Under the pieces are notes generated by a model. That model saw nothing but the letters and a program-made list of their open reading frames with translations. It searched no databases and was not told the DNA's origin. Shown here one piece after another: positions 11,629-12,335 of a DNA stretch of 64,000 nucleotides (positions within the stretch are counted from its first letter, which is position 1; each line of letters begins with the position of its first letter). The position numbers and the translations under genes were made by a program. Source of the DNA: Serinus canaria (taxonomy: Eukaryota > Chordata > Aves > Passeriformes > Fringillidae); contig NC_066336.1 of the NCBI RefSeq assembly GCF_022539315.1, positions 3,166,600-3,230,599 on the forward strand. Reading direction: 5' to 3'.

Positions 11629-11846
11629 TGATGTCCTCGCATGCAAGATGCCTGAATAATTTGCCTCAAAACCAGTTTGCTTTAATTGCAGGGCTGTAGC
11701 AGTTTTGAGAGTGAAACCTGATTTTATATATATTTATGTATACAAAATGTACGCATGGATACAAAAAATGGATTTTTTTCCCTCTACTTCCTCTGCCCTC
11801 CTTCCCCTGTCCCAGGCCCAGAGCTGATGCCCAAAGCCCTGTCTAC
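11629..11846 (+). repeat. Splice-site tandem duplication, unit 1 (decoy exon 13 start)
   Basis: A 218-bp unit starting TGATGTCCTCGCATGCAAG, including a full pyrimidine tract and CCCAG at 11811-11815. It ends in a 31-nt copy of the exon 13 start (11816-11846) with one mismatch to the real exon (12305-12335). The unit ends at GTCTAC, inside the exon. If this acceptor were used, the frame would continue into the next unit and stop at TAA 11914-11916. Confidence 0.88.
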
Positions 11847-11943
11847 TGATGTCCTCCATGCAAGATGTCTGGATAATTTGCCTCAAAACCAGTTGGCTTT
11901 AATTGCAGGGCTGTAACAGCTTTGATAGTGAAACCTGACCATA

Positions 11944-11990
<47 letters not shown>

Positions 11991-12117
11991 TATATGTGTG
12001 TGTGTGTGTACATATATAAAATGTATGTATGCATATATAAAATGGGGTTTTTCCCTCTATTTCCTCTACCCTCCTTCCCCTGTCCCCCCCAGAGCTGATG
12101 CCCAAAGCCCTGACTAC
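11847..12117 (+). repeat. Splice-site tandem duplication, unit 2 (decoy exon 13 start)
   Basis: Second unit, 271 bp. It is longer than the others because a TA dinucleotide run (about 11942-11995) expanded inside it. It ends in a 25-nt exon fragment (12093-12117) after CCCCCCAG, lacking six bases at the exon start compared with the real one. The reading frame is preserved and would stop at TAG 12182-12184. Confidence 0.88.
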
Positions 12118-12335
12118 TGATGTCCTCCATGCAAGATTCCTGGATAATTTGCCTCAGAAGTTGGCTTTAATTGCAAGGCTGTAGCAGCTTTTACAGTAAA
12201 ACCTGACCACACACATATATATATGTACATAAAATGTATGTATGGATACATAAGATGGATTTTTTCCCTCTATTTCCTCTGCCCTCCTTCCCCTGTCCCC
12301 CCAGGCTCAGAGCTGATGCCCAAAGCCCTGTCTAC
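12118..12335 (+). repeat. Splice-site tandem duplication, unit 3 (functional copy)
   Basis: Third 218-bp unit. It carries the real acceptor (CCCCCCAG, ending at 12304) and runs seamlessly into the full exon 13. Units differ by roughly 10-15 percent by eye, so the duplication is old. Its junctions share the microhomology CTAC in the intron and in the exon. Confidence 0.88.

What the first reader, a model, noticed from the sequence alone, without database searches (positions are those of the whole stretch)
11629..12335. 3' splice site and first 31 nt of GRIK3 exon 13 present three times in tandem
Three units (218, 271 and 218 bp) each carry the intron end, pyrimidine tract, an AG and the start of exon 13; only the last runs into the full exon. 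The two decoys keep good acceptors (CCCAG at 11815, CCCCCCAG at 12092) and the correct phase. They read into in-frame stops at 11914-11916 and 12182-12184. The breakpoints share CTAC in intron and exon, suggesting a microhomology-mediated duplication. Use of a decoy would truncate the receptor just after the pore loop, so this locus may make a poison or short isoform, or may have evolved decoy silencing.
Basis: partly seen in the sequence, partly recalled or inferred. Interest (0 to 1): 0.75.

Follow-up and report, generated by a model that had tools for sequence, protein, structure and literature searches.

The report
Tripled splice acceptor in GRIK3 intron
In what appears to be a bird genome, the stretch that ends an intron and begins an exon of the glutamate-receptor gene GRIK3 has been copied to make three in a row, leaving two look-alike splice sites in front of the real one; it is probably a mostly silent relic, but also a natural version of a known splicing experiment.

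Summary
Three diverged tandem units (11629-11846, 11847-12117, 12118-12335; 88.7-90.1% identical) each carry a pyrimidine tract, an AG and the start of GRIK3 exon 13; only the third runs into the whole exon (12305-12522). Correction: unit 2 lacks the first 6 nt of the exon copy, so it carries 25 nt, not 31, still in phase. Both decoys score as strong acceptors, above those of exons 12, 14 and 15 and below exon 11 (recalled tables). A homologous intron of unnamed source (P0008) reads from the upstream intron through one unit into exon 13, so one unit is most simply ancestral. The divergence argues against an assembly duplication. Neither decoy has a strong 5' splice site behind it. With long flanking introns, exon definition should favour the third site (exon of 218 nt against 430 or 707), and published constructs with a duplicated globin acceptor spliced poorly and only to the distal site. 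Best reading: a nearly neutral relic that may slow intron removal or leak a little NMD product. Keeping acceptor and phase needs no selection. No RNA data were available, so use of the decoys is untested.

The parts
11629..11846 (+). Unit 1 (U1, 218 nt): intron 12 end, pyrimidine tract, AG, 31 nt copied from exon 13
   Evidence: Alignment of the three units
11847..12117 (+). Unit 2 (U2, 271 nt): as U1 with a TA/TG expansion and a 25-nt exon copy
12118..12335 (+). Unit 3 (U3, 218 nt): true intron 12 end and first 31 nt of exon 13
11625..11628 (+). CTAC at the intron breakpoint, shared with exon 12332-12335 (microhomology)
   Evidence: Sequence
12332..12335 (+). CTAC at the exon breakpoint
   Evidence: Sequence
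11773..11815 (+). Decoy 1 pyrimidine tract and AG (score 10.95, rank 34 of 5032 AGs in the window)
   Evidence: recalled frequency table
11816..11846 (+). Exon 13 copy behind decoy 1; reads GPELMPKALST then intron residues to stop 11914-11916
12047..12092 (+). Decoy 2 pyrimidine tract and AG (score 10.14, rank 53 of 5032)
   Evidence: recalled frequency table
12093..12117 (+). Exon 13 copy behind decoy 2 (25 nt); reads ELMPKALT then intron residues to stop 12182-12184
12259..12304 (+). True pyrimidine tract and acceptor of exon 13 (score 11.26, rank 26 of 5032)
12305..12522 (+). GRIK3 exon 13 (218 nt), donor AAG|GTGAGA rank 8 of 2496 GTs
9959..10077 (+). GRIK3 exon 12, donor AAG|GTAAGG rank 3 of 2496; ends in phase 1
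11941..11995 (+). (TA)n expansion inside U2

Best explanation
Small tandem duplications across the intron 12/exon 13 boundary of GRIK3, the first perhaps joined at the CTAC that both breakpoints share, left two acceptor cassettes (likely branch-point A, pyrimidine tract, AG and 25-31 nt of exon) in front of the real one. [Shown: the anatomy, one unit in P0008, the divergence. Inferred: two steps, microhomology, branch points.] The spliceosome can see all three acceptors, but flanking introns of 2.2 kb and about 12.6 kb mean that the exon is recognised by exon definition; only the third acceptor makes a 218-nt exon with the strong donor at 12522, while decoys would need a 707- or 430-nt exon or a weak cryptic donor. 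So the third site is used nearly always, the decoys act at most as landing pads for U2AF/U2 that slow intron 12 removal a little, and the rare decoy-spliced mRNA stops after 30-33 codons and is removed by NMD. The decoys drift almost neutrally. [All of this last part inferred.]
For: Unit alignment; of the 32 other matches of the region in this genome (a lower bound because simple repeats are skipped) none covers a unit: they fall in the TA-rich part or in the exon. P0008 residues 1-42 match 11498-11644, 44-62 match 11649-11705 and 68-171 match 12187-12528, i.e. upstream intron, one unit, then true exon. Each cassette has 37 of 40 pyrimidines. No GT scoring above 1 within either decoy's exon copy; the best GTs further on are AAT|GTATGT at 12022 and 12235, rank 151 of 2496. 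Exon 14 begins near 25137. PMC5389562: globin constructs with a duplicated 3' splice site, the proximal one followed by 14, 55 or 205 nt of exon, spliced very inefficiently and only to the distal site; double occupancy by U2AF/U2 hinders splicing. PMC9225289: introns over 250 nt are in the exon-definition class, and exons between longer introns were included efficiently only below about 500 nt. Neutral retention of strong acceptors is likely.
Against: PMC9225289 reports an overall preference for the upstream of two competing 3' splice sites; with long introns on both sides it is significantly reduced, and I did not see that it is reversed. [quoted passage not shown] Decoys score above three real acceptors of the same gene (exons 12, 14, 15). 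Their tracts are predicted to be slightly more open than the true one (unpaired 0.68 and 0.82-0.84 against 0.58-0.61). In the 69 columns of tract plus exon copy 5 vary against 11 of 88 in the 5' part (Fisher p 0.30); adding the AT-rich part to the latter gives p 0.016, which composition could explain but selection could too. P0008 is one protein without a species name, and the assembly behind it could in principle be collapsed.
Confidence: 0.72

Rival explanations
1. The decoys are used as regulated poison acceptors or poison exons that lower GluK3 protein through NMD or give a truncated subunit.
For: Strong acceptors, correct phase and in-frame stops in both decoys; weak candidate donors that would make pseudoexons of 207 nt (11816-12022) and 143 nt (12093-12235).
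Against: GTs of that rank or better occur about once per 424 nt in this window (151 in 64000), so two here are unremarkable. Two protein searches found no protein with a decoy tail: 7 candidates and no hit at E up to 10, 613 candidates and only P0008; these tests are weak because such short frames are seldom predicted as proteins. In human RNA-seq GRIK3 had no alternative junction passing the authors' relevance criteria (PMC8257547, passages), so no ancestral programme at this place is evident.
Confidence: 0.1
2. The decoys mainly compete for U2AF/U2 and cause regulated retention or slow removal of intron 12, a natural dampener of GRIK3 output.
For: Concurrent occupancy of duplicated 3' splice sites went with poor splicing in vitro, and a competitor that reduced it raised splicing several-fold (PMC5389562); decoy exons are tied to OGT intron detention (PMC12017769, abstract and outline only).
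Against: No RNA data; a lasting loss of efficiency would be expected to be selected against (inference); nothing seen here indicates regulation.
Confidence: 0.12
3. Assembly artefact: a false tandem expansion of one unit.
For: A TA run nearby could disturb assembly.
Against: Units differ at 21-24 of 211-213 columns pairwise, plus indels; false copies would be near identical.
Confidence: 0.03
4. Intron gain in progress, as in the potato RdRp gene.
For: Same kind of duplication across an intron-exon boundary (PMC4974935).
Against: No GT scoring above 1 in the 25-31 nt exon copies, and reading on gives stops.
Confidence: 0.02

Closest known systems
Laboratory constructs with duplicated 3' splice sites (beta-globin, used in PMC5389562, there cited to Reed and Maniatis 1986, which I saw only as a citation)
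   Same: Acceptor cassette copied upstream of itself with a piece of exon attached (14, 55 or 205 nt there; 31 and 25 nt here)
   Different: Natural, two extra copies, diverged, with long flanking introns and a downstream donor
Intron gain by tandem duplication across an intron-exon boundary, potato RdRp gene (PMC4974935)
   Same: Tandem copy spanning the 3' end of an intron and the 5' end of the next exon
   Different: There a GTAAG donor made a new spliced intron; here no such donor is found in the exon copies
Decoy or poison exons in retained introns (OGT, PMC12017769, abstract)
   Same: Intronic splice sites that could compete and lead to stop codons
   Different: The OGT decoy exon is reported as included in RNA; here the donors are weak and inclusion is unknown
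NAGNAG and other close tandem acceptors (definition recalled; PMC2951375 seen as a listing)
   Same: Competing AGs in one intron with phase kept
   Different: Here the acceptors are 277 and 212 nt apart, each with its own tract

Membership tests
Tandem genomic duplication spanning an intron-exon boundary | Adjacent direct copies that include intron end and exon start | tested here: met
Tandem genomic duplication spanning an intron-exon boundary | Derived from a single-copy ancestor | tested here: met
   One homologue, P0008, with one unit; source species not named, so this rests on a single record
Intron gain by tandem duplication | A usable donor within the copied exon segment | tested here: not met
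   No GT scoring above 1 in 11816-11846 or 12093-12117 (recalled donor table)
Intron gain by tandem duplication | Spliced reads proving the new intron | not testable with these tools
   No RNA data held
Poison exon | In-frame stop when included | tested here: met
   stops at 11914 and 12182
Poison exon | Own 5' splice site | tested here: inconclusive
   Best candidates rank 151 of 2496 GTs
Poison exon | Inclusion in RNA and conservation between species | not testable with these tools
   No RNA; no intron DNA of named relatives
NAGNAG tandem acceptor | Acceptors a few nt apart | tested here: not met
   Distances 277 and 212 nt (from the positions)
Mutually exclusive exons by duplication | Whole exon with both splice sites copied | tested here: not met
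   Only 31 and 25 nt of exon copied

The most novel reading that the evidence does not exclude
In a clade of birds an array of three near-equal acceptors has become a heritable brake on kainate-receptor GluK3: the two exon-less cassettes hold U2AF/U2, so intron 12 leaves slowly and in a regulated way, and copy number of the cassette tunes receptor dose.
Probability: 0.06. Interest if true: 0.75.

Novelty: new variant of a known kind. Interest (0 to 1): 0.38.

Why it matters
It is a natural counterpart of the duplicated-acceptor constructs used to ask how the spliceosome picks one of several 3' splice sites. Three acceptors of nearly equal score, differing mainly in what lies behind them, would let exon definition be measured in a living brain gene from RNA-seq. 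It also shows how a boundary-crossing duplication can persist in a conserved receptor gene without changing the protein's reading frame.

Tried and rejected
Structural silencing of the decoys: local partition functions give unpaired probabilities of the AG of 0.05, 0.02 and 0.06 (120-nt context) and 0.06, 0.01 and 0.08 (240-nt) for decoy 1, decoy 2 and the true site, so no useful difference. The intron part of U1 and U2 pairs with their own exon copies better than shuffles (0/500 and 1/500 reach it) while U3 does not (101/500), but other parts of intron 12 pair still better with the true exon start (-33.8 near 10496), so I do not rely on it. The first accessibility table is invalid (negative probabilities); of that call only the unit folds and the neutral simulation stand. 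Selection for keeping the decoys: not shown. Recursive splicing: the bases after the decoy AGs are GC and AG, not GT. The paralogue control used wrong exon starts at L011 and L012 and held one chance match at L010, which I dropped; it is replaced.

Splice scores rest on recalled Shapiro-Senapathy-type frequency tables, not on a table built from this genome; the plan to build one failed because the genome search did not complete. The acceptor of exon 16 was not resolved (best AG in the scanned stretch scores -0.72) and is left out of the comparison. Ages of about 11-20 My rest on recalled avian rates of 2.0-3.3e-9 per site per year.

Literature, listings shown of papers found: 3 of 3; 20 of 61; 4 of 4; 15 of 76; 7 of 7; 10 of 31; 25 of 28. 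No listed title describes this locus. Opened: PMC4974935 (abstract, results section), PMC5389562 (passages, sections 12 and 15), PMC8257547 (passages), PMC8724738 (passages, not used), PMC9225289 (abstract, section 9, passages), PMC12017769 (abstract and outline).

Full report
OBSERVATION. The window lies in an unnamed 1.05-Gb genome at C25:3166600-3230599. The region holds three direct tandem units, 11629-11846, 11847-12117 and 12118-12335, of 218, 271 and 218 bp. Pairwise identity over ungapped columns is 188/211, 189/213 and 192/213. Most of the extra length of unit 2 is a TA/TG run. The third unit ends in GRIK3 exon 13 (12305-12522), whose 72 whole codons are identical to the GluK3 chain 6kzm_A and match Pfam Lig_chan. 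Both decoys keep the phase of exon 12 and read into TAA 11914-11916 and TAG 12182-12184. One correction: unit 2 lacks the start of the exon copy, so its AG at 12092 is followed by 25 nt of exon sequence, six fewer than the true site; phase is kept because six is a multiple of three.

CHANCE AND CONTROLS. Scanning the 1500 nt upstream of exon 13 for its first 31 nt gives 30/31 and 28/31 at the two decoys and then 17/31; the same scan at the homologous exon of three other loci of this genome (L010, L011, L012) gives 18, 15 and 16 of 31 at best (which replaces). A search of the whole genome with the region gave 33 matches: the locus itself, and 32 others that fall in the TA-rich part or in the exon (counts there are lower bounds). 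So no dispersed repeat is seen.

ORIGIN. A protein search with the open frame around exon 13 gave 1828 proteins, of which the 120 listed were looked at by eye and the rest not seen. One, P0008 (192 aa, 11 members, 23 contigs, source code lgn, which I take to be assembled SRA reads, no species name), reads from the upstream intron into exon 13. Against the window its residues 1-42 match 11498-11644, 44-62 match 11649-11705 and 68-171 match 12187-12528: one unit, no decoy. Its exon start also matches the decoy copies more weakly, as any exon 13 must. So the single unit is most simply ancestral, on the word of one record. P0001-P0007 match near the exon but begin too close to it to show unit number. 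By eye, P0008 supports unit 2 and unit 3 as the younger pair (they share the loss of a G in TCCTC(G)CATGC and a C at 12188), and unit 1 has 12 private columns against 10 and 10; this is weak, because P0008 is known as protein only. Outside the AT-rich part K2P is 0.072-0.080 for the three pairs, about 11-20 My under recalled avian rates.

SPLICING SIGNALS. With recalled acceptor frequencies the true site scores 11.26 (rank 26 of 5032 AGs in the window), decoy 1 10.95 (34) and decoy 2 10.14 (53); other acceptors of the gene score 12.29 (exon 11), 7.89 (exon 12), 9.00 (exon 14) and 9.01 (exon 15); exon 16 was not resolved. Each cassette has 37 of 40 pyrimidines, and in each the A of CCCTCTA lies 29, 33 and 32 nt upstream, which I take as the likely branch point (not tested; units 1 and 2 have one further A each in the 18-44 nt range). 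Donors of exons 12 and 13 rank 3 and 8 of 2496 GTs; between the decoys and exon 13 the best are two AAT|GTATGT sites of rank 151.

MECHANISM. Intron 12 is 2227 nt and intron 13 about 12.6 kb (exon 14 begins near 25137). Introns above 250 nt fall in the exon-definition class of PMC9225289, which also notes that exons between longer introns were included efficiently only below about 500 nt (passages). With the donor at 12522 the three acceptors would make exons of 707, 430 and 218 nt. This favours the third. Against this, the same paper finds an overall preference for the upstream of two 3' splice sites, significantly reduced for long introns on both sides, and I did not see a reversal for 3' sites in the section read. 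[quoted passage not shown] A second construct showed that double occupancy hinders splicing. I therefore expect the true site to be used, with some loss of speed and rare decoy products that end after 30-33 codons and go to NMD. In human RNA-seq GRIK3 showed no alternative junction passing the authors' criteria (PMC8257547, passages).

SELECTION. Keeping a strong acceptor needs no selection: with 4-8% substitution 61-79% of simulated copies score at least 10.14. The tract-plus-exon part varies less than the 5' part, 5/69 against 11/88 columns, p 0.30; with the AT-rich part added to the latter p 0.016, which I read as an effect of composition, though it does not exclude constraint. RNA structure does not separate decoys from the true site; if anything the decoy tracts are predicted slightly more open.

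TESTS FOR USE. The alignment of the two decoy frames found 7 candidates and no hit; a joined query found 613 candidates and only P0008, part of which was in the query. Both are weak negatives, because short frames are seldom predicted as proteins and no RNA data are held here.

KNOWN RELATIVES. Potato RdRp (PMC4974935, abstract and results section) is a natural duplication across an intron-exon boundary that produced a new intron with a GTAAG donor; here the donor test fails. Decoy exons of retained introns (PMC12017769, abstract and outline) and close tandem acceptors differ as listed. Among the listings shown (some of them only part of the papers found) I saw none that describes this locus. 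I rate it a new variant of a known kind.

VERDICT. Real, derived and neatly built, but most likely a nearly neutral relic. Its value is as a natural experiment that RNA-seq could settle quickly.

Noticed in passing
15821-19338: Array of about 177 copies of a 20-bp unit inside GRIK3 intron 13, with an open frame of 1211 codons on the minus strand over it (15780-19415).
   Followed up: no
27971-28938: Minisatellite of about 8 copies of 123 bp (also seen as 242- and 363-bp units) in the downstream part of the gene.
   Followed up: no
60611-61717: Plus-strand stop-to-stop frame of 368 codons; its translation has no Pfam match at E up to 0.1.
   Followed up: partly
11847-12117: Unit 2 with its TA/TG run folds into strong hairpins; its folding energy is 5.7 sd below shuffles.
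   Followed up: partly
11691 and 11908: A further acceptor-like AG (TTTAATTGCAG, scores 8.78 and 7.30) lies in the 5' part of units 1 and 2; unit 3 reads GCAAGG there instead.
   Followed up: no
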